The position numbers were made by a program, and so were the translations under genes. A DNA stretch of 34,387 nt, from positions 1 through 34,387 of the forward strand of contig JAGTVA010000208.1 in assembly GCA_018224445.1 (NCBI GenBank). Direction: 5' to 3'. Of the stretch, positions 5,467-20,933 are shown in pieces; within the stretch, counting starts at the first letter, position 1; the number at the start of each line of letters is the position of its first letter. Source of the DNA: Saprospiraceae bacterium (GTDB lineage: Bacteria; Bacteroidota; Bacteroidia; Chitinophagales; Saprospiraceae). The notes beneath the pieces were generated by a model. The model saw only the letters and a list, made by a program, of their open reading frames with translations. It did not search any database and was not told the origin of the DNA.

Positions 5467-7662
5467 TTAGGGAGAGCTGCCTTTAATCAAAGTTCGTACA
5501 CCCATGCCTTCATCTGTTTTTACAGTCAAGAAATAAACGCCCGGTGAAAGGTTTCCTGGAACTTCCACCACGAGTTGCTTTTGACTCGTCTTTGGAAAGA
5601 GGTGAAGAATTGTTCTTCCGAGGACATCCGACAGTATGGCCTCCTTAATTTCTTGTTCGCTCCCTCCTTCAATATTGAATTCACTACTGAAGGGAATGGG
5701 AAAAACCGAAAATTTAAAGGCCGACTCCTCGTGAACCGAAGATATAATAACACTCACCTCCATTTCTATGGTGTCGGAAAAACACTCGTTGACGGCTATG
5801 AGTGAAACTGTAAAAGTCCCGGTCTCCCGGTAAGTATGAATGGGTGATTCTTGGGTGGAGGAATTACCGTCGCCAAAATCCCAGAAAAATTGATCCGCCT
5901 TTTCTGACCAATTTTCAAAGTACACCGTACCCTCTTCGATCTCTACCGTAAAATCAGCAAGGGAGTGATTGTCGATTGAACTCAAAATGCTTTCCACCGT
6001 GCCCTGAGCCAGATGGTAAAAACTCCCCCCACTTGATTCCACCAATTTCACTTCCCGGATCATATATTGATATACTGAATCGACCCTGAGGCAGGGATCG
6101 CAATAGGATTTTTCAGTAATCGGTTCCTCATTTATCAAAGTATACAGTTGACTCCCACTGCTTTTTTTGTAGAGGTAAAAGGGGCGGAGATCGGCTCCAT
6201 CGTAGTCCCAGCTCAACTCAATGCAGTCCTCTTTTTCAGTCAGAGATAGATCGGCAACTGCTCCAATCGGGTACATATTCAGCGTTGGGTCTCCCATCAG
6301 AGCGAGGTTGGTCGACCGCGCAAAATTGCTAAAGTATACCCCTGTAAAGGCATTCTGGGTTTTTCTCACACTAAAGCCGACACTTTCACCCATGCCCATG
6401 GAGTGGAAAACAAAAGCCGGTCTCCCAGCCCATACATTGGTCAATACCGTACCCGAAGCCAATGCACCCCTGAGCAGATTGTTGGAATTGTCCCAATCTC
6501 CAAAATAGCTTCCGAACAACATGGTAAAAATGGTTTGAAGGGAATCGGAAGCGAGCTGATTGACATTTATAATGCCGCTTGCATGGGTATAACTACCGGG
6601 GCCACAACCGTAGGACCACAGCCAGGGTTCGTTGGTAAGCGCGGCGCGGTAATTTCCGTATTCCACCGCATCGGGACCCAACAGATTGCCAAAGTTTTTT
6701 AAACCGCTTTGCCCGAAGCCCTCGGGAAAGTTTCCGAAATTGTTTTGAACGATTCCGCGCATCTGGGTGGGAATTTCACCTCGGCGATAGGAAATGTTCT
6801 TTCTGAGGTATTGCAGCGTCAGCTCGGCCTCCGGTGCATCAAAAGCCGGCAATCTCGACATGTCTACCCTTCCGACCTCCAGTTCGAGTTGAGAGAAAAC
6901 GACGTTTTGATCAAATTTCCCGTCTCCCGGTAGATTGTGATTTTCAGGTCGATCAGCCACCGCAATGTTCACATAACTATCGGTCCAGTTTCCCGTCATA
7001 TCACCGTAATAAGTATCTGCCGGCCAGGCCCCGCGGTGGTCCGGAACATGCCCATCCGGGGCCATGTCTCCACTGTAGGGTACGGGGATATTTCCCAGCA
7101 GCAACACCGATCTCAAATCAGTGTGTAGACCGTAGTGATTGACAATGTGATCTTTCACCTCCCCCACTCCATCGGATTCATTCACTTCAATGACATCTAC
7201 AACCCAACCTGATTTATTTACCTCCAGGCAGTAATCCATTAAGTCTGGCTTTATTTCCTCTGCCAGAGATTCTACGACCAGTATGAGCAATCTGCCTTGG
7301 TAATGCCTCGGAGCCTTTTCTATTCCGGTTGCTATAAATCCGGTTCCCACTTCGTCATTAATGAATCGCGTTACTCTGTACTCATAAATTTTTTCCGTCT
7401 CTACCGTTGAATCCAAAAAGTGAGTGCTGTCTCCGGGAAGCAGTGCCAAAGCAGAGAAGGGGCCCGAGTAATTTTCTCTCCTCGCCACCTGGTAATAAGT
7501 GGCCTCAAACCAATTGTCCCAACTCAATTTAATAGAAGGCGTTTCTCTGTCGATCTCCACTTCAATAATTACGGTCGCCATAGAGTCGTGGATTTGGGCC
7601 TCCAGGGGCATCATAAACATTAAAGCTACCGGAAGTAATAGCATCAAATAAACAGCTCTCAT
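5467..7662 (-). CDS. secreted gingipain-like (C25 fold) protein with T9SS sorting domain, probably inactive as a protease
   Basis: The 731 residues run as follows: signal peptide (1-22), FN3-like domain (about 28-112), caspase-like C25 domain (about 122-466), a linker with Cys pairs, PKD domain (about 568-640, with FFWDFGDGNSS), and a type A T9SS C-terminal domain (about 650-731, FPIPFSS...GVYFLTVKTD). The C25 assignment follows from RLLILVVESLAEEIKP, SVLLLGNIPVP, ADTYYGDMTG, EVGRVDM and LMGDPTLNMYP. At the place where gingipains have the catalytic His-Gly the sequence is YGCGPGS (Cys353). Where they have the catalytic Cys (ACVNGDF in RgpB) it is GSYFGDW (Ser385). Both catalytic residues thus appear replaced, suggesting a binding or structural role. 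A consensus promoter lies upstream. Confidence 0.75.
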   Translation of the reverse strand: MRAVYLMLLLPVALMFMMPLEAQIHDSMATVIIEVEIDRETPSIKLSWDNWFEATYYQVARRENYSGPFSALALLPGDSTHFLDSTVETEKIYEYRVTRFINDEVGTGFIATGIEKAPRHYQGRLLILVVESLAEEIKPDLMDYCLEVNKSGWVVDVIEVNESDGVGEVKDHIVNHYGLHTDLRSVLLLGNIPVPYSGDMAPDGHVPDHRGAWPADTYYGDMTGNWTDSYVNIAVADRPENHNLPGDGKFDQNVVFSQLELEVGRVDMSRLPAFDAPEAELTLQYLRKNISYRRGEIPTQMRGIVQNNFGNFPEGFGQSGLKNFGNLLGPDAVEYGNYRAALTNEPWLWSYGCGPGSYTHASGIINVNQLASDSLQTIFTMLFGSYFGDWDNSNNLLRGALASGTVLTNVWAGRPAFVFHSMGMGESVGFSVRKTQNAFTGVYFSNFARSTNLALMGDPTLNMYPIGAVADLSLTEKEDCIELSWDYDGADLRPFYLYKKSSGSQLYTLINEEPITEKSYCDPCLRVDSVYQYMIREVKLVESSGGSFYHLAQGTVESILSSIDNHSLADFTVEIEEGTVYFENWSEKADQFFWDFGDGNSSTQESPIHTYRETGTFTVSLIAVNECFSDTIEMEVSVIISSVHEESAFKFSVFPIPFSSEFNIEGGSEQEIKEAILSDVLGRTILHLFPKTSQKQLVVEVPGNLSPGVYFLTVKTDEGMGVRTLIKGSSP

Positions 7663-11093: not shown

Positions 11094-14000
11094 CTATCGG
11101 ATTTCCCAGGTAAAATTCAGTCCGTATTCCACTCTCAACTGATCGAATCCCCATTCCTCAAAGAGTAGGTTGCCATAGGCATTGAAATCCAATCTGTCAT
11201 TTATCGGATAATCCAATTTGGCTCCTACGGGCCACTCTGTCAATTCTTTTTTCAGATTGGAGTTTGAACCCGGCAACAAATGGAAGGAGGTTTGTCGGTA
11301 ACCCACAGTCAGATCCAGATTTTCAAAATTTGGAAAAGGCTGAAAACCTATGCCCGGTTGCAGTGTATTTGCCTTGAAGGGATAGGAAAACCCACTGCCG
11401 TAATCCGCGATGTATCCCGAGGAAAACTGCAATAACCCGGTAAACGAAACCCTTGAGTCTGCCTGGCTTAGGCTGAAACTGAATCCGGTTCTTTTATGGG
11501 AAACAATCACACTCTCAGAGGTAATACCCGGCAGTTCGGGAATCCCGTTTGGGTCGGTTGTAAGAGCGCTAAGAAAATCTTCGTCCACCAACGCCGTCTG
11601 TCCCGAGAAGGTGAATTTCAATGGATTGGGGGACGTTAAAGCCCATGGATTACTTGTAAAACCAGCTACTACCTCTACTACAAGTACTTCGGAAAAGCAT
11701 TCGAAAGCATCCAGAACTATCATCTCATAAATACCTTCCGATACATTGTCAATTTGAAAGTTGCCGGGGGGTTCCAATCCCGGAAACTCCATGTCATTTA
11801 CAAACAAGGTATAGGGCGGAAAGCCACCAACTATATTGACAATGATAGATCCGTCGTTGGCTGAGGGGTCACTGGGTGGAATTACTTCCACCAAAGTCAA
11901 CTCAGGTAAATCGGGCTCCGGGAGTTGAATAATTACGCTCTGTGCACAATCCGCACCTGCTATTTCATCAATAATGGTGAAGGTCCACAGCCCAGGGGTC
12001 AGAGGGAAAAAATCTCCCCACGATTGAACCCCTTCCGGGATATCGGCAATGAAGACGTCACCTTCCGGAGATTCAGCCTGTACATTCAAAAAATCGGACC
12101 CTACACTTTCCAGTTCAACCACCAGTTCAGGTGGAGTATTACAACTGCCGGGAGCCACTTCTGAAGATACCAAATATTGGCCTTCGGGCTCCTCATCTAC
12201 AAACACTTCGAAATTTTCCGTACAATCGGTTTCCGGATCGTAAATTTCCAGGCCGTAGGTCCCTGTGGGTACATTTTCGAGAAAAAGCCCCCATTGCCCA
12301 TTGCTCCAGGTAAGCACCAAATCGTCGTTGAAGGGGATGATGTCCGCCGCCACAAACCCTGTAGAAATTCCGCAGCCCGATGGTGTTACTATAAAGTTAA
12401 CTTCAAACTCTTTACATGGAATCCTCTCTACAATAAAACCGATGGAAGCAGTAATCTCCCGTCCACAAATGTCTGTAACCGTAATAGAACTCACATATTC
12501 GCCGGGCTGGGAAGTGAAAAAACTCATCAATCCATTGGATTCTACATGAAAATCAGCCCCGGATATATCATCGAAATTTACTACACTTAATTCTTCACCA
12601 ATGGCGTAATCATCCAAAAAGTTAAGGGTGATCTCTTCTCCTGCCATTAAAGTGAAAGTGGCATCTTCTACATCAAAGGGAACTTCCTCCTCCGGAATTA
12701 GAAAATCGAACACTTGGGTGCAACGATCCTGGGCCCCTTCAACAGTAAAGGTCAATTGAACGGGACCTAAAAGAAAGTCTTCTCCCAGGTCTCCTTCCAT
12801 CAATTGCAAGAGAGAGAACTCCGATTCTCCAATCGAGTATTCAAAATCACCAAAGTCGGTACTCACAGATAAAAAATCAGTAATAAGGGGGCCTTCATTT
12901 ACGATAATCATAATATCTCCTGAGGTGTGACAGTTACCGGGAGTAATCTCAGTCTCCAGAGAAACATCAAATGGGTTTTCGTCTATTAGGCCCGTAAATT
13001 CTTCTCTGCAATTCGCATTTTCCGCATCGATTACTGTAAATACATAGCTTCCTGGAGCCAGGTTTTCAACTGTATCCGAAGCGGGTTCTCCATCGATTAA
13101 AAAGTTGTAAGATCCGAACAACTCTTCGGTAGCAAATACCAGCACTCCATTGTCCAATCCGCAATCAGAGGGGGTGACGACCAAGTCTCCGTTTATTTCA
13201 CAGGGTTCGTCGCTGACAAATATTGTAATATTTCCGGTGGCCTCCGATTGACAGGCATCTCGTACAGTATAGGTCAGCGTAATTTCACCGGTAAAATCGG
13301 GACTCAGGGTAATACTCACTTCTCCGTCGGGGGTAAAAACCGCTTCACTGATTCCCGCGTGATCTCCGAGGTCAATCAATTCGCAATCGTCGCAACCGAT
13401 AGATTGTAATACGTTGAATTCAACCAGGCCGCCCACCTCGCCTTGAAAACTCAAATTCTGCACATTTAAAGGGGGCCTTTCTACCACCACAAAAACGGTA
13501 GCCTCTGCCGAAAGCCCGTCCTCGTTGACCACCGTATAAGTAATTTCAAAATCTTCAAAAGCGGAGGGGGAAATTATGATCAAATCTCCCTCTTGAGAAA
13601 CCCAGTCGGTAGAAGAAGTGAATGATTCCAAAATGAGTCCTTCACCCTCGTCGTTGAGTATGGGATTTACAGATCCTCCTTCCCCGCACGTTACCGTGAT
13701 AGTGACATCATTGGCTACGGGTGGATCTCCGTCCGGATGGACTTCAATAATGACGACGGACGAAGCCACAGGTGGACAAGGAGGTTTTCTAATGCTGTAG
13801 TTGATTTCCAGGGTACCGAAAAAATCGGGATCGGGAATGGCTGTAAATTCACCGCTGGAGTTAAAGGTCACTGCGTTGAGATTGGGGTGGTCTCCCAAAT
13901 CAATTAATTCACAATCACTGCAGTTGATTAAATTGAGAAGGTTTCCCTGCAGGGTAACGCCCTGTTCGGTTTCCAGTTGAACACTGGGCGCGTCCAACGG

Positions 14001-15044
14001 GGGAATGTTAACGGTAACAGACACAGTGGCCTGATCGGTATTTCCATTGGCATCCTCAACTGTATATGCGATGGTAAAATTATCGGTTACTGCAGGATCA
14101 ATGACCAGTATATTTCCGTTTTGACTGACCAGGCCCGACGGAGCATCAAAGCTTTGTAACATCAGGCCGACTCCCTCATCGTTGGAAAGCGGATTGACAG
14201 TACCTCCCTCTCCACAATCGACGGTAATGGAGAGGTCATTGGCAACCAAAGGCACATCGGGATCGTCGTCGTCGTCAGTGAGTAGGACAATACCCACCCC
14301 GGTTACTACTGCTCCACCACCTGCATAAATCCACCAGGGGACTCCCGGTGCTTTAGGTTTCATACGGGCAGAGGTGAGGTCGATATTGTCCCATATGGAA
14401 GAATCATAGGAAAATTCCTCATCATTAGCGGCTTGCTCCTCATTGGTTTCCTCTTCATTACTATCCGAAGGATTGCTTTCATCCTCCTCTACAGGAGGCT
14501 CGCATTCTTTTTTCTTCTCCTTTAATTCTGCTATCTTTTTATCCACTGCATCCATTATCTCCTGATCCTTTCCCTCGATTGTTTTACCTCTTTTTGCTTC
14601 TCTTTCTTTTTTTGCTTCTTTTTTCTCTTCTTTTTCCTTTATTTTTTCTAAATCCTTTATGGCATCATCAATGCCTTTTTTTCCTTTATCATAATCTCCT
14701 TTATCACAATCCTTTTTAGCTTTTTCAACTGCTTTATCAGCCTTTTCAAATTCTTTTGATAAAGACTCCCAATCCTTAATTTTACCCAATCTTCCTTTGG
14801 CTCTTTCGGCTGATTCAGCTGATTTGTATTTCCCCTTTTTGTAGGCCTCTTGGGCTTCCTCAAATTTTACCTTTGCTTCATCAAATTTTTCTTTTGCTAA
14901 TTTGTAGTCTCCCTTTTTTACAGCTGCTTTAGCTTCCTGCAAAGCCCTATTTGCTTCTGAATAGGTGGTTGCCGGATTTTGTTGACCGTTAGCTGATAGC
15001 ACTAGCAATAGGATTAAATTAAGTACTAAAAAAAGAGCTTTCAT
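11094..15044 (-). CDS. giant envelope protein: coiled coil, membrane helix, tandem Ig-like repeats, barrel-like C-terminus
   Basis: This 1316-residue protein has a signal peptide (MKALFLVLNLILLLVLSANG), then a Lys/Glu-rich helical region (about 25-185) with repeated AxKKGDYxxAK units that look like TPR/coiled-coil repeats. An acidic linker (185-215) and one hydrophobic helix (236-255, WWIYAGGGAVVTGVGIVLL) follow. Next come two tandem 176-residue cadherin/Ig-like repeats (267-442 and 443-613), then SprB-like modules with TPSxCG and APGSYVFTVID motifs, and a C-terminal part of about 200 residues resembling outer-membrane barrel strands, ending LRVEYGLNFTWEIR. No T9SS sorting domain is evident. 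It is the last gene of the four-gene caspase cluster, 34 bp after the caspase gene. Function unknown; a surface scaffold is an inference. Confidence 0.75.
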   Translation of the reverse strand: MKALFLVLNLILLLVLSANGQQNPATTYSEANRALQEAKAAVKKGDYKLAKEKFDEAKVKFEEAQEAYKKGKYKSAESAERAKGRLGKIKDWESLSKEFEKADKAVEKAKKDCDKGDYDKGKKGIDDAIKDLEKIKEKEEKKEAKKEREAKRGKTIEGKDQEIMDAVDKKIAELKEKKKECEPPVEEDESNPSDSNEEETNEEQAANDEEFSYDSSIWDNIDLTSARMKPKAPGVPWWIYAGGGAVVTGVGIVLLTDDDDDPDVPLVANDLSITVDCGEGGTVNPLSNDEGVGLMLQSFDAPSGLVSQNGNILVIDPAVTDNFTIAYTVEDANGNTDQATVSVTVNIPPLDAPSVQLETEQGVTLQGNLLNLINCSDCELIDLGDHPNLNAVTFNSSGEFTAIPDPDFFGTLEINYSIRKPPCPPVASSVVIIEVHPDGDPPVANDVTITVTCGEGGSVNPILNDEGEGLILESFTSSTDWVSQEGDLIIISPSAFEDFEITYTVVNEDGLSAEATVFVVVERPPLNVQNLSFQGEVGGLVEFNVLQSIGCDDCELIDLGDHAGISEAVFTPDGEVSITLSPDFTGEITLTYTVRDACQSEATGNITIFVSDEPCEINGDLVVTPSDCGLDNGVLVFATEELFGSYNFLIDGEPASDTVENLAPGSYVFTVIDAENANCREEFTGLIDENPFDVSLETEITPGNCHTSGDIMIIVNEGPLITDFLSVSTDFGDFEYSIGESEFSLLQLMEGDLGEDFLLGPVQLTFTVEGAQDRCTQVFDFLIPEEEVPFDVEDATFTLMAGEEITLNFLDDYAIGEELSVVNFDDISGADFHVESNGLMSFFTSQPGEYVSSITVTDICGREITASIGFIVERIPCKEFEVNFIVTPSGCGISTGFVAADIIPFNDDLVLTWSNGQWGLFLENVPTGTYGLEIYDPETDCTENFEVFVDEEPEGQYLVSSEVAPGSCNTPPELVVELESVGSDFLNVQAESPEGDVFIADIPEGVQSWGDFFPLTPGLWTFTIIDEIAGADCAQSVIIQLPEPDLPELTLVEVIPPSDPSANDGSIIVNIVGGFPPYTLFVNDMEFPGLEPPGNFQIDNVSEGIYEMIVLDAFECFSEVLVVEVVAGFTSNPWALTSPNPLKFTFSGQTALVDEDFLSALTTDPNGIPELPGITSESVIVSHKRTGFSFSLSQADSRVSFTGLLQFSSGYIADYGSGFSYPFKANTLQPGIGFQPFPNFENLDLTVGYRQTSFHLLPGSNSNLKKELTEWPVGAKLDYPINDRLDFNAYGNLLFEEWGFDQLRVEYGLNFTWEIR
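13206..14246 (-). repeat. two tandem 176-residue repeats inside the giant envelope protein
   Basis: Residues 267-442 and 443-613 share VANDxxITVxCGEGG, NDEGxGLxLxSF, VSQxG, YTV, PPL, CxDCELIDLGDH and PDFxG at matching positions, each repeat holding two Ig-like subdomains. The CxDCELIDLGDH segment is almost identical in the two copies, which suggests a recent duplication or strong constraint on a Cys pair. Confidence 0.85.
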
Positions 15045-15078
15045 GACAATGCTTTTTAAATTAAGAGATTTTGTTTTT

Positions 15079-18000
15079 TTACTTCCACAACTTGGCCCTG
15101 AGGCCTATATCATGCGAGGAGTTCCAGACTGACCATAAACCGGTGTTCATTTCCTCCATAGTTTTTTCATCTTTTATATTTATATTATGGTCAGGCATTG
15201 TTTCCCTTACCATATCTATTGACCGCTTTTTAAAATCTTCAAACTGATACCCGGTGCCGGTCAGATAACTGTTGTAAACCCAGGTTAAATTCTGAAGCAC
15301 ACTATACCTTTGCAAGTGTCCCGAATAACCGTAGGGGGTATGCAGCGCCTTGCTGTAGTGAAAATCATCGTACACTGCTCCGGTAACAGCTCTGGCTTTA
15401 AGGTGAAGTTCTCCCAATTGCTTAAAATAAGCAACCTGGTCAGCTTCAGATAATTTCTTTAAATCCGTGGGGATCGGGTTTAACAATTCATCGGTTCCGG
15501 GTTGTAATAATTGCACTTTATCAGAAACAGGTGATTTTGAAGGACTGAATCCAGCAAAATTTGGATCTGTCATTCTGCCATCCAGCGCTATCCAATCTGT
15601 AGCAGGATTTGCGGTGGATCCTTTTTTGGGTGGACTTTTATCAAAATCCATACAATGGCCAAAAACCTCCAATGAAGTCGTTTCACCGGGAAGAAGTGAA
15701 ATTTCCGTTTTTTCCGGCAAAATAAAACCCTGGGTCTTTTTACCGGGGGGCACTACGTAAGGTCCCAATTCGCATAAAACGGGTTCATCTCCTGTGTTGG
15801 TTACCTTCAGATTAAATACATTCCCACTCACCTGACCAGTTGCTGTACTGCCTATATCCAAAACGGAGGGATCGGGGCATTGGCACTCATTCTCTTTTTT
15901 TATGTAAAAAAACAGGTGGAGTGTATCCTGAAATTGGTAATTCAGTTCGGCGGTATTAATATCCTCCACTTCACCTTCGTCTTTTTGATCTCCTCTCCAA
16001 AAACTCAGGCGGTAACCCCGGCCGGGTTCAAGTCCCGAAATGGTATTGAATCTGACTTTTCTCGTCTCAAAAGGTTCCAATTGATAAAAGTCCACGTAAT
16101 CGGTGTATATAGCGGATGTTTCAAAATTGGGCACATTGGCTCTCGACCGGACTGATTCTGTGCGGTGAGGATTGCGCTGGTGCAGAGCTTCAAAAAGGCC
16201 CGGAGAAGTAAGGTCTATGGTTTCCTGAAGGTAGGCATCGGATTCATTTACAGCCAGTTGTTTGATCCACTCTACAATTCTATCCAAACAGTTCTCTTTA
16301 TCCGGGCAACGTACTTCCAAATCACTCTCAGGACGCCCGATTGTTTCTGTTAGATAATCTGAAAAATAATTTTTCAACCCCTCTAACTCTTCAGTTGAAA
16401 ATTCAGGTTGCGACCCCGCAGATTCTTTAGCTTCACTCCACAGCTCATTCACTTCGTCTCTCAATTCTCCAGCATCACAACCTGCGGATTCGTGTAGAAG
16501 GGCATTGGAAAAGGCGCCTACTGAACTGATTTTGCTTTTGTAATCAAAGTCCAATTGATAGTATTTGGCAGTTTGGCCGGAATAATGGTTTTGAGTGGGG
16601 GAACTGTGGTTTCTCAGATAGGTATTTTTCCATCGAGTTAAATTAGGGGCTCTTTCCTCGAGTTTTTCCCGGGGTATTTTTCTCAGATAATTCATTAGGT
16701 AAGCAGCTCTCAGAGTGGAATATATTTTATCTTTGATTTGCTCCAGTGATACCGGAAAGGCGCAGGATTGCAACCAACCTTCACAGCCTGAGGGGAAGAC
16801 TGATAAATCTATATCCGGACGGTCGCCTTCCGGGGTTTTGAAATCGCTACCGTCCATTAGAGTTTGCAGGACATCAAGATTATCCGCATTCGTGTAATTT
16901 TCCTTTTCGGGAAGCTCATCGAGGGGGTAGAGCGCTAAATGTATCCTTCCTCTGTAGGTTTCTCTGTCCTTATTGAGTAGGTATATGGAGGGTAGAACAG
17001 ACTCCAGGGTGCCGGATTGGTCAATAGTATGGTCTTTCAATCGGGTATGCGATACACTACCCCTATCCCGTGGTTGTGGAACCCAACCATTTACAACCCA
17101 TAAGCTTGAATCTGAAGTTCCGGGAACCCGCATTGATAGCCAAATATTGTCACAGCTTTCTAATGGCCGGGTTCTTTCAACTACAATAGTATCTAAAAAT
17201 CCAATAAAGATGGTATCCCTAACCTTTATCAGGGAATCGAGGTGCTTTATTTCTTCCTCTGAAATTCTGGCGCGGTCGTAACCGTATCTCCTGAGCCAGG
17301 GCTCTCTGACCTCAAACTCAATAATCCCATTTTCCCTGTCAATTCCGGTAATATGAACCAGTCCTCCAAGATATCTTCCAAAAGGGCGGAGGGTATCAAC
17401 CGGAGTTGCAGACCCTGTAGGATCGATAATGTTGACATCTTGTTGAATCCACCTGCAAACTGAAATCTGTGAATCGGAATCTAGATCTTCAGAGGGATAA
17501 TCAATCCACAATTCTCTGCAGAACATATGTCTTGGCCAGGTGGTGTGCACCTTGGCCCGGTTTTCCCGAACTTCCATGACGTGGGCTGAGATCAATTCGC
17601 TATCAGGTGGATCTGCATCAACCAAATCACCGATGTTTTCTCTGAGTCCATTGGGTTGTTCATAGACGATTTGGGTTGAAATCCATTGACATTTTCTGAA
17701 ATTAAGCCATGCAACAGGCTCTGTCAACAATACGGTATCCAACTCTCCTCTCCTCCACTTTGGGTCGTAAATTTCTATTACGACAAAGGTGAATCCCGAA
17801 AGACCACTATTGTATAGAACATTGCGTATATGGCCCCGGACATCAAAAGTATCCACTCTATATCCCTCGGGACGTTCACCCTCTTCCCAATCACTAGCTG
17901 GAACTTTGTCGCGAGCATCGCCATGTGCTTCATCAATTACTTCATCAATTGGATTATCCTCATCAACCAATTCATCCATCTTAGTAATTAATCGCCTTAA

Positions 18001-18576
18001 ATAAGAAGAAGATATGGAATCCAGAGCATTTAAAGCCTGCCGGTAATACATAAGAGCATCCGCAGTGGTAGCTGTAAACACCCGCTTTATATGTTCTTCC
18101 CTTGACAGTGGTTCAATAGCGCTTCCTGAGTGACAGGCGTTTAAAATAAAGTGAATTTTGCAACAGCATTCCGGATCGTTGGCAAATATTGCCGCTGCAA
18201 TTTCCCTATAACTTAAAAATCGATCTCTATTTTGTTCTCCTTTTGAAAAAACTATTCCCCCGGGAAAACCATGACCTGAAAAAACGAAGTACAAAGTATC
18301 TCCGCATTCACAATCCATATCCAATATAAAATCTAATAGTGCCTCAGCGGAATCAATCCTTGTTTCATCAGCATGAGGTACATGTTTCCGAAAAGCAGTC
18401 ATAAAATCATCGAGCAAACCAGTAATAGCTCTATCAAAATCTGTAGTCTCGGGACCTGGATCAAAGCCTCCGTCAATGGTTATTACTCTCGTTCTTCCGT
18501 CTGACTCAAAGACTATCATCAGGGCCAATAAAACCAATAGCAAGCCTTTCCAATATTTTTTTACATGACAGCTCAT
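15079..18576 (-). CDS. exported caspase-like (peptidase C14 fold) protein with shared C-terminal module
   Basis: This 1165-residue protein has a signal peptide (hydrophobic core GLLLVLLALMIVF, residues 11-23). The caspase-like domain (about 29-240) contains the catalytic pair His102 in FSGHGFPGG and Cys148 in LNACHSGSA, followed by KRVFTATTADALMYY. The long middle part (about 240-900) is beta-rich and unrecognised. The last 230 residues, from GPYVVPPGKKTQGFILP (938), are homologous to residues 119-329 of the first gene of the cluster. Both catalytic residues are intact, so protease activity is plausible, with cleavage after basic or acidic residues not predictable. Most bacterial caspase homologs are cytoplasmic; an export signal on one this large is unusual. 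Its ATG overlaps the stop of the preceding gene (ATGA), indicating translational coupling. Confidence 0.85.
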   Translation of the reverse strand: MSCHVKKYWKGLLLVLLALMIVFESDGRTRVITIDGGFDPGPETTDFDRAITGLLDDFMTAFRKHVPHADETRIDSAEALLDFILDMDCECGDTLYFVFSGHGFPGGIVFSKGEQNRDRFLSYREIAAAIFANDPECCCKIHFILNACHSGSAIEPLSREEHIKRVFTATTADALMYYRQALNALDSISSSYLRRLITKMDELVDEDNPIDEVIDEAHGDARDKVPASDWEEGERPEGYRVDTFDVRGHIRNVLYNSGLSGFTFVVIEIYDPKWRRGELDTVLLTEPVAWLNFRKCQWISTQIVYEQPNGLRENIGDLVDADPPDSELISAHVMEVRENRAKVHTTWPRHMFCRELWIDYPSEDLDSDSQISVCRWIQQDVNIIDPTGSATPVDTLRPFGRYLGGLVHITGIDRENGIIEFEVREPWLRRYGYDRARISEEEIKHLDSLIKVRDTIFIGFLDTIVVERTRPLESCDNIWLSMRVPGTSDSSLWVVNGWVPQPRDRGSVSHTRLKDHTIDQSGTLESVLPSIYLLNKDRETYRGRIHLALYPLDELPEKENYTNADNLDVLQTLMDGSDFKTPEGDRPDIDLSVFPSGCEGWLQSCAFPVSLEQIKDKIYSTLRAAYLMNYLRKIPREKLEERAPNLTRWKNTYLRNHSSPTQNHYSGQTAKYYQLDFDYKSKISSVGAFSNALLHESAGCDAGELRDEVNELWSEAKESAGSQPEFSTEELEGLKNYFSDYLTETIGRPESDLEVRCPDKENCLDRIVEWIKQLAVNESDAYLQETIDLTSPGLFEALHQRNPHRTESVRSRANVPNFETSAIYTDYVDFYQLEPFETRKVRFNTISGLEPGRGYRLSFWRGDQKDEGEVEDINTAELNYQFQDTLHLFFYIKKENECQCPDPSVLDIGSTATGQVSGNVFNLKVTNTGDEPVLCELGPYVVPPGKKTQGFILPEKTEISLLPGETTSLEVFGHCMDFDKSPPKKGSTANPATDWIALDGRMTDPNFAGFSPSKSPVSDKVQLLQPGTDELLNPIPTDLKKLSEADQVAYFKQLGELHLKARAVTGAVYDDFHYSKALHTPYGYSGHLQRYSVLQNLTWVYNSYLTGTGYQFEDFKKRSIDMVRETMPDHNINIKDEKTMEEMNTGLWSVWNSSHDIGLRAKLWK

Positions 18577-19031
18577 CTGATGATATTTAAGTCTGAATAA
18601 ATCATAATATTACTGTTGTTTCGAGCAGAATCTGACATAAACAAGTTGATCCCATTTAGATAAGGCCACCACTGAAAATGATGGATATCGTATTCTCCAG
18701 TCTGTTGATTGATAATAACTACTCTGGTCGGGTGTGCAAAACCAGCCGTAGGATAATCATCAACCCACGCCAACCAGGATGGATTGCTAATGGTAATCTT
18801 TTGATGGTTGCTGTTTATAAATGGTTCAACTTCATCACCGGGCAAGAGTTTTTCACCGTGTACAAAAATAGAAACCGGACCCTCGTGATGAGCCGGAGGG
18901 GATATTTTACTCATGACCAGGTCAATGGCATCATTTCTCGAAAATTCCTCTTCCTCACTTTGCGCTGAGACTATGTTATAGACAAAGAAAATCATAAAAA
19001 AAACGGCTGATAATTTCATATAAATCTTCAT
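18573..19031 (-). CDS. small exported protein coupled to the caspase-like gene
   Basis: The 152 residues start at MKIYMKLSAVFF, whose hydrophobic core (SAVFFMIFFVYNIVSA) is a signal peptide cut near Q. A longer frame from 19067 adds 12 polar residues and is less likely. The mature part has the distinctive NPSWLAWVDDYPTAGFAHP and TRVVIINQQTGEYDIHHFQWWP segments. The V-I-I-N-x-x-T-G-E-Y pattern recalls PepSY/propeptide-type domains, which often act as intramolecular chaperones or inhibitors of secreted proteases; this is only a resemblance by eye. The stop (TGA) overlaps the caspase start codon, so the two proteins are probably made in step. A role as chaperone or inhibitor of the caspase is therefore a reasonable hypothesis. 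Confidence 0.8.
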   Translation of the reverse strand: MKIYMKLSAVFFMIFFVYNIVSAQSEEEEFSRNDAIDLVMSKISPPAHHEGPVSIFVHGEKLLPGDEVEPFINSNHQKITISNPSWLAWVDDYPTAGFAHPTRVVIINQQTGEYDIHHFQWWPYLNGINLFMSDSARNNSNIMIYSDLNIIR

Positions 19032-19094
19032 GAGTCTTTGTTTTATGTTTGTATTAGTCCTTTTCAAAATTCATGTTCAACAGGGTTTAATCAC

Positions 19095-20933
19095 TTATCT
19101 GGATTTAATGGTAACTGTTATTTCCCTTGTAAAGGAGGCCGGTTTACAGCGGGATTGGTAATCTGATCCACACTCGCCAACAGCTACTATTGTGATTTTT
19201 GCACTTACATCCACTTCCCTGTCTTCTCGTCTGCCCTCCACTATTAATTCCAGATTACAGCCGTTTTCTCTCCACAATTCCGCTTCTCTCTTGTTTCTGA
19301 TCTCCTCTAATCTGTCGGCATAGGATCTTCTTAAAATGCTATCGCTTCTATTCAGATCGCGGTCCAATTTTTTTATTCGTCTTTCCAAATCACTGTTTTC
19401 CCCTCTCAGTGCATTTCTCCTCTCTCTTTCCTCCCTTTCTCTGGTTCCACGCAGTTCGTCAATAATTCTTTGGTTTTCCTCTATTTTTGCTCTTAACCCA
19501 GCCAGTTCTTCTAGCAATTCTTCTTTGAGTTGCTCGAGTCGACTTTCCTCCTCGTTTTCCAGGATTTCATTAATCTGACTTACTTTTTCTGATGTTAAAC
19601 TGCTCAAATCAGAAGTATTAAATTTTGTGTGATCCACTCTATTGGGATTACAAGGGGATGTGAATGTTTGGGTACTTGTTCCTCCCCCCGGGGTTCTCCT
19701 CCTCGTCTGGATCACACATTCGCATTCCACCTCGGGTTCGCATTCTACTTTAATTTTTGTACCGGGAAGCAGTCTGCCCACCATAAAATCTCCCTGGTCA
19801 TCAACAGTAATTTCTTCACTTTCTCCCGCAGGGGTGATTACCTGTATTTTGATATTGAATTCAAATGAGGAGACACTGCAGGCTTCACGGTTATCTTCAT
19901 CATCTTCATCGGTTTTTTCCGGAGAAAGGACTGCTGATCCCTTGGAGATGACCTTCGCCTCCACACCTACGAGGGTTGCAATATTCCAGAAATCCTGAAT
20001 ACCTGCATTTATATTCTCTTTTTCCTCTTCGTTTAAATTTCCTCCGGTTTCCGGCAACTGATCAAAAATGCGCTCTCCCCATTCCGTTTGGGTAAATTCA
20101 TCCCCCGAGAGAGCAGCAGCAGCTCTCCATACCAATTGCTGAATGACCGCATTCCTTTCCTCCAATGGCCGATCAGTAAGAGGTGTAATTATTTCTCCGA
20201 CATTGGATAAATAATCGTAAGTATCGATTATTCTGCCGACATAATTCCCGATCAGGTCAGCTACCTCCTCCGGGTAGGCTGCAATATCGATCACGTGATT
20301 GAGATCGTTTTCCGTAATCGGATTCAACAATGGGCTTTCCAGATCGGGCTCCCACCCCGTGGTTGGGTTGGGCTCCCAGTCATCGGGAAGCGGGTTTATA
20401 CTGATCCAGTCCCCAAAGTCTGTTCCTTTATCTCCACTTCCCAAAGGGGGTTTATCAGGGTCGATGCAAATTCCGTCTACAGGAACGGTAATGGTACCCC
20501 CCGGTGGGACCTCTACTTCTGTAGTTCCCGGAATTACATAGGCTTGAGTTTTTCCCTTTCCGGGGACCAAAACAGGTCCGATGGTCATTCTTCCGGGCCT
20601 GTTATTATCCCTGTTTTTAATTTCTAAAAGTAAAACCTGGCCTATCGTCTGACCGGTGCCTCTTACTTTTACATTCAGTTGGTCTGAATTTAAAACCCCG
20701 GTTTCCCGGACTGAATAGTCAGGTTCTAAAGAAAAAATTGAGGTAACTTCAGTCCACTGATTACCAGAATTTAAATATTTGCATTCTGCAAGGTGGTTCA
20801 AATGGAATACGTCAATTTGGGCCGGATTGTCAAATTCCATTGACATGCGAGCATTATTCCCTTCCTGCTGAACAAATAAGAAAGCAATTGGAAATACAAA
20901 CCACAGGCACAAAGAGTAGAAGTGAATTTTCAT
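19095..20933 (-). CDS. exported coiled-coil protein sharing a module with the caspase-like protein
   Basis: The 612 residues start at MKIHFYSLCLWFVFP (signal peptide or anchor); a start 11 codons upstream (20966) is possible. Residues about 119-329 form the module shared with the caspase tail: GPVLVPGKGKTQAYVIP, TEVEVPPGG, CIDPDKPP, SPLLNPIT, QQLVW and FWNIATLVGVEAKV. A Cys-rich segment follows (CEPEVECECV), then a charged coiled coil (about 450-560, rich in EEL, REREERERR, LERRIKKLDRDL), and a small beta domain at the end with three cysteines. No enzyme motif and no T9SS sorting domain are seen. It is the first gene of the four-gene cluster, 63 bp before the small coupled gene. Confidence 0.78.
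   Translation of the reverse strand: MKIHFYSLCLWFVFPIAFLFVQQEGNNARMSMEFDNPAQIDVFHLNHLAECKYLNSGNQWTEVTSIFSLEPDYSVRETGVLNSDQLNVKVRGTGQTIGQVLLLEIKNRDNNRPGRMTIGPVLVPGKGKTQAYVIPGTTEVEVPPGGTITVPVDGICIDPDKPPLGSGDKGTDFGDWISINPLPDDWEPNPTTGWEPDLESPLLNPITENDLNHVIDIAAYPEEVADLIGNYVGRIIDTYDYLSNVGEIITPLTDRPLEERNAVIQQLVWRAAAALSGDEFTQTEWGERIFDQLPETGGNLNEEEKENINAGIQDFWNIATLVGVEAKVISKGSAVLSPEKTDEDDEDNREACSVSSFEFNIKIQVITPAGESEEITVDDQGDFMVGRLLPGTKIKVECEPEVECECVIQTRRRTPGGGTSTQTFTSPCNPNRVDHTKFNTSDLSSLTSEKVSQINEILENEEESRLEQLKEELLEELAGLRAKIEENQRIIDELRGTREREERERRNALRGENSDLERRIKKLDRDLNRSDSILRRSYADRLEEIRNKREAELWRENGCNLELIVEGRREDREVDVSAKITIVAVGECGSDYQSRCKPASFTREITVTIKSR

What the first reader, a model, noticed from the sequence alone, without database searches (positions are those of the whole stretch)
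11094..20933. Four-gene exported caspase cluster, possibly an undescribed envelope system
Four consecutive minus-strand genes are packed with gaps of 63 bp, an ATGA overlap and 34 bp, and every product has an export signal. One is an 1165-residue caspase-like protein with an intact dyad (His102, Cys148). The others are a coiled-coil protein that shares a large module with it, a small coupled protein, and a giant trans-envelope repeat protein. Caspase-like enzymes in known bacterial systems are mostly cytoplasmic (for example CHAT proteins with gasdermins); I know of no described system with this composition. Function is unknown: surface proteolysis, competitor killing or envelope quality control are guesses.
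Basis: partly seen in the sequence, partly recalled or inferred. Interest (0 to 1): 0.8.

Follow-up and report, generated by a model that had tools for sequence, protein, structure and literature searches.

The report
Caspase riding a shared exported module
In an uncultured Saprospiraceae-like bacterium a caspase-like enzyme is fused to an exported protein module without a known family, and because that module usually sits beside a repeat-rich envelope-type protein in the related bacteria that have it, the caspase looks like a rare passenger of a two-gene unit rather than part of a fixed four-gene system.

Summary
The four genes are real and the coordinates hold, but they are not a fixed four-gene system. 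P0004 and the C-terminus of the caspase P0002 share a ~260-residue module (M) without a family in Pfam, NCBIfam or PDB sequences. M has one invariant Cys (37/37) and an invariant Gln and Trp (36/36); AlphaFold predicts a sandwich plus helices (pLDDT 89). In 31 of 44 loci that can be judged, M lies in one run with, or is fused to, a P0001-type partner. Partners carry a W..I.LTG..AK motif (22 of 34 genes after M genes), and in some of them it repeats the register of M's own C-terminal helix. The caspase and the small gene are an insert seen in one other genome. M is elsewhere fused to another peptidase-like domain, eCIS_core. Best reading: M docks payloads, here a caspase, on an envelope stalk, and P0003 is the caspase's dedicated companion. 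Docking, location, companion role, activity and substrate are inferred. A Cys-Gln thioester in M is an open, testable alternative.

The parts
19095..20933 (-). P0004, 612 aa, signal-like N-terminus: module M (about residues 82-332) followed by a coiled-coil extension
19938..20690 (-). module M of P0004; Gln130, Cys156, Gln265, Trp269 (alignment A3 positions 63, 89, 198, 202)
18573..19031 (-). P0003, 148-152 aa, signal-like N-terminus, coupled by ATGA to the caspase; no Pfam family; 73-76% identical in the only other genome found with the caspase
15079..18576 (-). P0002, 1165 aa caspase-like protein with signal-like N-terminus and a C-terminal module M
17677..18504 (-). clan CD (caspase-like) region of P0002, residues 25-300; His102 codon at 18271-18273, Cys148 codon at 18133-18135
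15082..15873 (-). module M at the C-terminus of P0002 (residues 902-1165); Cys975, Gln1095, Trp1099
11094..15044 (-). P0001, 1316 aa partner: signal-like N-terminus, coiled coil, W motif, Gly-rich hydrophobic stretch, Big_9 Ig domains, unassigned C-terminal region
14358..14393 (-). partner motif WDNIDLTSARMK, residues 218-229 of P0001
14280..14336 (-). Gly-rich hydrophobic stretch, residues 237-255 of P0001
9746..11014 (-). downstream flavoprotein-like gene that also lies beside the P0001 relative in G006 and G001 (synteny marker, not part of the system)

Best explanation
The cluster is a local version of a two-component envelope unit of Saprospirales-type Bacteroidota. Module M (a predicted Ig-like sandwich plus helices) is a docking domain. 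The partner (P0001 here) is a stalk with Ig-type repeats and, in short relatives, an outer-membrane-barrel-like domain. M proteins bring different payloads to that stalk: coiled coils, an eCIS_core peptidase-like domain and, in this genome, a caspase-like cysteine peptidase. Docking would use the partner's W..I.LTS..MK peptide, which in some partners lies near the likely mature N-terminus and repeats the register of M's C-terminal helix (in P0001 it follows a coiled coil and the likeness to M is weak). P0003 is the caspase's dedicated exported companion, most likely an inhibitor or folding helper. The result would be a peptidase of unknown specificity held at the cell envelope. Shown: gene order, module sharing, motif, conservation, distribution. 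Inferred: docking, location, companion role, activity.
For: M shared by P0002 and P0004. Of 53 loci, 27 have a partner in the same-strand run and 4 have M and partner-like repeats in one chain; 13 have none and 9 are cut by contig ends: 31 of 44 assessable. The 27 rest on the motif in 24 and on repeat similarity alone in 3. One partner can go with two or three M genes (L055, L108, L113). Motif in 22 of 34 distinct non-module genes directly downstream of M genes against 2 of 452 other ORFs, and those two also lie directly downstream of M genes; Fisher p 2e-27, though the pattern was drawn from the same partners and some are close relatives. Check not drawn from partners: a matrix built from M C-termini alone scores 8 bits or more in 7 of 30 partners and 3 of 341 controls, two of which are themselves partners. 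Two fused proteins have a partner-like motif after M (L054, L109). M fused to eCIS_core in two proteins (9.5e-12; 1.4e-7). Short partner L119 hits OMP_b-brl at 35.5 bits, cut-off 28.7. A two-sequence caspase profile against PDB returns 18 rows, 17 of them caspase-1, best E 0.039. Caspase and small gene stay coupled in G007 and are constrained (caspase domain dN 0.21, dS 1.45, near saturation).
Against: No binding was measured or modelled. 13 of 44 assessable loci have M without a recognised partner. P0001's own motif scores only 1.3 bits with the M matrix, and at thresholds of 0 to 6 bits controls score too (24 of 341 at 0, 6 at 6); the strict motif pattern fits 40 of 62 module ends and neither of the window's two. 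In two of the four fused proteins the strict pattern finds only M's own end. A partner-like paralogue of about 1500 aa stands without an M gene nearby in the four genus members looked at. P0001-type repeats match 46 of 60 relatives, so repeat similarity alone is weak evidence. No barrel is detected in P0001, and its hydrophobic stretch, if a true stop-transfer helix, would not fit a simple exported topology. Pfam C13 and C14 scores are below cut-off (20.4 vs 22.8; orthologue 18.2 vs 21.4); the single-sequence caspase model failed (pLDDT 36.2). No P0001 orthologue was found in G007, the only other genome with the caspase (74% complete, contigs end).
Confidence: 0.4

Rival explanations
1. M is a diderm thioester domain: its invariant Cys bonds with an invariant Gln and reacts covalently with targets, so the unit is a covalent adhesin on a stalk, and the caspase either trims M or is carried to the bound target.
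For: Cys 37/37 and the only Cys in 23 of 37 modules; Gln63 37/37, Gln198 and Trp202 36/36. [quoted passage not shown] No invariant His, so a Cys-His hydrolase is unlikely. 3 of 7 short partners have no Cys after the motif, so a general disulfide to the partner is unlikely.
Against: No Pfam TED hit in any of 20 modules up to E 10; no PDB sequence match; no TED among the listed fold matches (which does not exclude it). In that paper's domains the thioester Gln is not the Gln of the helix motif, which was not essential; in three of its structures it comes well after the Cys (e.g. Cys109-Gln261), whereas here the only other invariant Gln precedes the Cys. In P0002 the helix motif reads LQNLTW.
Confidence: 0.2
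2. Antagonism: P0002 is a contact-dependent protease toxin displayed on the surface and P0003 is its immunity protein.
For: Small ATGA-coupled exported-looking companion found only with the caspase. M genes in two loci lie near genes that look like contractile-injection spike genes (L112, L057), and two M proteins carry eCIS_core.
Against: P0003 is as conserved as the caspase (73% vs 70% identity), but two sequences cannot show toxin-immunity divergence either way. Spike-like genes were noticed at 2 loci only. A Sec-type signal argues against injection.
Confidence: 0.15
3. Envelope maintenance: a periplasmic caspase-like peptidase, scaffolded by P0001, that processes or degrades envelope proteins.
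For: All four proteins look exported; exported-looking caspase homologues are known and 3 more occur in this genome.
Against: This caspase is rare (window genome and G007 only in the samples searched), unlike a housekeeping protease.
Confidence: 0.15
4. The four genes are neighbours by chance and act separately.
For: M+partner occurs without small+caspase.
Against: The caspase carries M itself, and M with partner recurs in 31 of 44 assessable loci, four of them as one chain.
Confidence: 0.07

Closest known systems
Prokaryotic caspase homologues / orthocaspases, peptidase clan CD (C14, C13)
   Same: His-Cys dyad in SGHG and NACHS motifs; 17 of 18 PDB profile rows are caspase-1
   Different: Below Pfam cut-offs; fused to module M; coupled to a small exported-looking gene
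Gram-positive thioester domains (TED; Cpa, SfbI)
   Same: Invariant Cys in a Y/F-C context, a Q..(Phi)W(Phi) helix motif, exported proteins on Ig-like stalks
   Different: No match to the TED model, different order of Gln and Cys, head and stalk mostly in two chains, diderm host; [quoted passage not shown]
Big_9 / SprB / HYR repeat surface proteins of Bacteroidota
   Same: P0001 and other partners carry Big_9, and some HYR or SprB, domains
   Different: Partners have a W motif, a Gly-rich hydrophobic stretch (giants) and an M gene in the same run
eCIS_core (DUF4157) proteins
   Same: Two M proteins carry this domain above its cut-off
   Different: They have signal-like N-termini by eye; no injection-system operon was seen on the stretches held around those two
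Caspase/CHAT-gasdermin defence (recalled)
   Same: Caspase-like peptidase
   Different: No gasdermin match in the cluster, exported-looking

Membership tests
Clan CD caspase-like peptidases | His-Cys dyad in the expected motifs, conserved | tested here: met
   motifs recalled, residues read in the sequence; both kept in 2 of 2 sequences
Clan CD caspase-like peptidases | score above the Pfam cut-off for C14 or C13 | tested here: not met
   C13 20.4 bits vs 22.8; orthologue C14 18.2 vs 21.4. Placed in the clan by motifs and profile ranking, not filed in a Pfam family
Clan CD caspase-like peptidases | caspase-hemoglobinase fold | tested here: inconclusive
   single-sequence model pLDDT 36.2; caspase-1 chains first at E 0.039
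Clan CD caspase-like peptidases | proteolytic activity | not testable with these tools
   needs an enzyme assay
[quoted passage not shown]
   Cys 37/37; residue before it Y or F in most rows, but I, H or W in others, including both window modules
Thioester domain (TED) | TQxx(Phi)W helix motif (kept in most TEDs) | tested here: met
   Q198 and W202 36/36 in a predicted helix; the leading T is not kept
Thioester domain (TED) | thioester-forming Gln in a strand after the helical part | tested here: not met
   no invariant Gln after W202; the other invariant Gln (63) precedes the Cys
Thioester domain (TED) | match to the TED family model | tested here: not met
   none of 20 modules up to E 10
Thioester domain (TED) | TED fold | tested here: inconclusive
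Big_9 Ig-repeat protein (P0001) | Big_9 domains above cut-off | tested here: met
   84.3 bits vs 23.6, 4 stretches
Outer-membrane barrel protein (P0001) | OMP_b-brl domain | tested here: inconclusive
   not in P0001 up to E 1; above cut-off in short partner L119
T9SS cargo | recognised T9SS C-terminal sorting domain (model names recalled) | tested here: not met
   no such NCBIfam model among the hits of the four proteins up to E 1
Caspase-gasdermin defence system | gasdermin gene beside the caspase | tested here: not met
   no gasdermin among Pfam hits of the other three proteins up to E 1; best PADLOC hits E 0.01 (P0003, pAgo) and 0.022 (P0002, caspase)

The most novel reading that the evidence does not exclude
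M plus partner is an undescribed payload-display system of diderm bacteria: an exported docking domain with a reactive Cys (possibly a Cys-Gln thioester) is held on an outer-membrane stalk by peptide mimicry between the partner's N-terminal region and M's C-terminal helix, and exchangeable enzymes, including a caspase, are put on the cell surface this way.
Probability: 0.25. Interest if true: 0.78.

Novelty: new variant of a known kind. Interest (0 to 1): 0.55.

Why it matters
The module matched no family in the libraries searched, yet it occurs in 26 of 248 sampled genomes of the family, usually with a defined neighbour, and has invariant residues that invite a chemical test. If it is a docking domain, it suggests how these bacteria place unrelated proteins, including peptidases, at the envelope. 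If it is a thioester domain, it would extend covalent adhesion to diderm bacteria. Either way a one-off caspase cluster becomes a testable two-component system.

Tried and rejected
Fixed four-gene system: rejected, since module-giant pairs occur without caspase and small gene in G003, G005 and G006. In G006 the module gene directly before the giant is 78% identical over 120 residues to the gene upstream of small gene and caspase in G007.

TED membership: motifs suggestive, but the family model and the Gln order fail. The two PDB sequence hits from alignment A1, a designed repeat protein at 2.8e-6 and a hydrolase at 1.4, were gone with the larger alignment A3. Foldseek had no match at E 0.001 or better; its top row was complement C4 (E 0.018, probability 0.20, TM 0.17, rmsd 22), and other complement rows follow. 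VIA-align's best rows are Z 5.4 and lower: four of the five with Z 5 or more lie on residues 15-110, one (8j2y_B, Z 5.0, rmsd 4.3) on 91-270. These are within what the tool calls common, so they are not taken as thioester evidence or as a fold assignment of the helical half.

Caspase model from a single sequence: unusable. Injection-system effector: spike-like genes noticed at 2 loci, not tested for enrichment. Disulfide between M and partner: not general, 3 of 7 short partners have no Cys after the motif.

Prior-description searches: (thioester with adhesin and Bacteroidetes; Saprospiraceae with caspase; Saprospiraceae adhesins; internal thioester with Gram-negative). I saw listings and abstract beginnings only, and none names such a unit; the library holds open-licence PMC papers only.

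Rows dropped or chosen: L145, L146 (partial matches) and L065 (slice of L026) were left out; the 53 loci are stretches from different contigs, not independent events (G003 and G005 are close relatives, L060 and L061 come from one genome). In one search the 30 partners were picked by hand; two partners left out of that list, L105:1615 and L124:1925, appear among its controls. One search looked at 440 distinct ORFs of 200 aa or more; the dyad pattern fits 5: the two module caspases and three of the four Pfam C14 proteins.
Full report
Observation. The window is a whole contig (C208, 34387 bases) of an 85.6% complete genome of 2.49 Mb in 208 contigs. Four minus-strand genes lie at 19095-20933, 18573-19031, 15079-18576 and 11094-15044, spaced by 63 bp, a 4-bp ATGA overlap and 34 bp. 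All begin with signal-like N-termini by eye. Residues 906-1163 of P0002 match residues 86-328 of P0004 (E 2e-23). On the downstream side G007 keeps four neighbouring genes at 74-84% identity.

The caspase. P0002 has His102 in YFVFSGHG and Cys148 in HFILNACHS. Pfam scores are just below cut-off (C13 20.4 vs 22.8; orthologue C14 18.2 vs 21.4). A two-sequence profile against PDB chains returns 18 rows up to E 10, 17 of them caspase-1, best E 0.039. A profile comparison with the four C14 proteins of the same genome aligns both motifs (hhalign probability 25.8%, E 0.0007). The single-sequence fold failed (pLDDT 36.2). I take it as a clan CD, caspase-like domain; activity and specificity are unknown. 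Between window and G007 the caspase domain shows dN 0.21 and dS 1.45, the module dN 0.21 and dS 2.12, the small gene dN 0.18 and dS 1.37; dS is near saturation, so this says only that all parts are constrained.

Distribution of the caspase pair. Of 60 relatives, 12 match some part of P0002, but only G007 along its length (67%); the rest match the module. P0003 matches only the window's genome and G007 in the same sample. The caspase domain matches only the window's own genome among 298 of the order (G007 was evidently not in that sample, as it would have matched). In G007 small gene and caspase overlap as in the window, and the gene before them is another module protein. In G006 a relative of that gene (78% over 120 residues) lies directly before the giant, with no caspase or small gene between. 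In G005 and G003 a module gene lies directly before the giant. So small gene plus caspase behave as an optional two-gene insert. In G007 no P0001 orthologue was found; both relevant contigs end there.

The module. An alignment of 37 modules (A3) has invariant G27, G31, N40, P57, Q63, G87, C89 and W109, and Q198, W202 and W249 in all 36 rows that reach them. C89 is the only Cys in 23 of 37; the P0002 module has four. Pfam gave only stray single-member hits for 20 modules up to E 10 (best 0.052), NCBIfam stray hits for 37 up to E 1 (best 0.1), PDB sequences none up to E 10. AlphaFold gives pLDDT 89.3, pTM 0.86: strands between 19 and 89, helices between 154 and 258. Foldseek has no match at E 0.001 or better; VIA-align's best is Z 5.4, mostly on the sandwich, which resembles common Ig-like domains. 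These lists do not show that the fold is new.

Where the module occurs. 26 of 248 genomes of the family, 23 of 189 good ones; 2 of 395 sampled across the phylum, both of the same family and one the window's own. A scan of named genome contigs with one short peptide pattern found 29 loci: mostly Saprospiraceae or Saprospirales labels, with Chitinophagaceae, Chitinophagales, Sphingobacteriales and plain Bacteroidetes labels, one Gammaproteobacteria-labelled MAG and two partial matches in Pyrinomonadaceae.

The partner. Of 53 loci, 27 have a partner in the same-strand run (gaps under 400 bases), 4 have M and P0001-like repeats in one chain (L054, L109, L126, L131), 13 have neither and 9 are cut by contig ends. 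The 27 rest on the motif in 24 and on repeat similarity alone in 3 (L110, L133, L140). As P0001's repeats match 46 of 60 relatives, repeat similarity alone is weak. Of the 13 without a recognised partner, four (L028, L103, L121, L122) are followed by a 286-353 aa protein; that of L028 (the same contig as L118) hits OMP_b-brl weakly. Several M genes can go with one partner (L055 three; L108 two before and one after; L113 two). Giants carry Big_9 and in part HYR or SprB domains. A short partner, L119, hits OMP_b-brl above cut-off (35.5 vs 28.7); L118, L120 and L123 hit it below cut-off. P0001's C-terminal region has no match.

The shared motif. Genes directly downstream of M genes carry W..[ILVF].[ALIVMF][TVSA][GS]..[AMFSV]K in 22 of 34 distinct cases against 2 of 452 other ORFs; those two are themselves downstream of M genes (L105, L120). 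Shuffled partners give 0.01 hits per set. The pattern was drawn from the partners and some are near relatives, so the contrast with controls is the evidence. The same spacing (Trp, small residue at +7, A-K at +10/+11) occurs at the end of M; the strict pattern fits 40 of 62 module ends, neither of the window's two. A matrix built from M ends alone reaches 8 bits in 7 of 30 partners and 3 of 341 controls, two of which are partners; P0001 itself scores 1.3. In six of seven short partners checked the Trp is the third or fourth residue from a Gln that looks like a cleavage site by eye (the Bacteroidetes Q-rule is known to me from the abstract listing of PMC5837995); in L120 likewise if cleavage precedes Gln. 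In P0001 the motif lies at residues 218-229, between the coiled coil and the hydrophobic stretch. Fused L054 and L109 have a partner-like WDKIELT motif after M; in L126 and L131 only M's own end fits.

Payloads. Two M proteins carry an eCIS_core domain above cut-off (L127 45.4 bits; L059 32.0 bits). Of 26 module proteins scanned whole with Pfam (2, 4, 10, 10; the two Pyrinomonadaceae proteins not counted), no other has a domain above its cut-off; the caspase is below its own. So 'exchangeable enzymatic payload' rests on three proteins and two domain types.

Mechanism and rivals. I prefer docking of M onto a stalk, because of gene order, fusions, several M genes per partner and the motif. Nothing here measures binding, and the mimicry is clear only in a subset of partners. 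The thioester reading rests on an invariant, often lone Cys, two invariant Gln and a helix motif like that of TEDs (PMC4450167, abstract and passages read), but the TED model does not match and the order of Gln and Cys differs. Antagonism and envelope maintenance remain possible. P0003 as inhibitor or folding helper is a guess from coupling and co-occurrence in two genomes.

Known literature. Exported-looking caspase homologues were noted in 2012: 46 sequences with a single N-terminal helix that may be a signal peptide, and the highest count, 28, in Haliscomenobacter hydrossis (PMC3501461, passages). The listings of searches name no such module-partner unit; they cover open-licence papers only.

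Verdict. A real and orderly cluster, framed too widely as a four-gene system. The new object is the module and its partner; the caspase is a rare passenger.

Noticed in passing
L145:8035-10461 and L146:8395-9831: Pyrinomonadaceae homologues of the short partner of L137 (35% over 171 and 31% over 318 residues, E 2e-27 and 3e-37) carry an embedded 26-40 residue copy of the module's conserved helix region (62-73% identical); the L146 protein has no Cys.
   Followed up: partly
L112:4786-7539 and L057:1780-12484: Genes that look like tail tube, VgrG and PAAR lie directly upstream of a module gene in L112; Hcp-, VgrG- and PAAR-like genes lie around a module gene in L057 (names by eye).
   Followed up: partly
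L127:628-1191 and 6499-6918: The module-partner pair of L127 is flanked on both sides by near-identical transposase-like ORFs, so the pair may move (by eye).
   Followed up: no
L064, L158, L159, L160: A second giant paralogue of about 1500 aa, with the strict motif in 3 of 4 copies, stands without a module gene on the stretches held in four genus members.
   Followed up: partly
L030:2044-11443: Three tandem exported-looking C14 caspase proteins (831, 1078, 1097 aa) elsewhere in the window's genome, without module M.
   Followed up: no
L141:8761-18177 and L142:8899-18090: Module M near the N-terminus of proteins of over 3000 residues in Chitinophagales MAGs.
   Followed up: no
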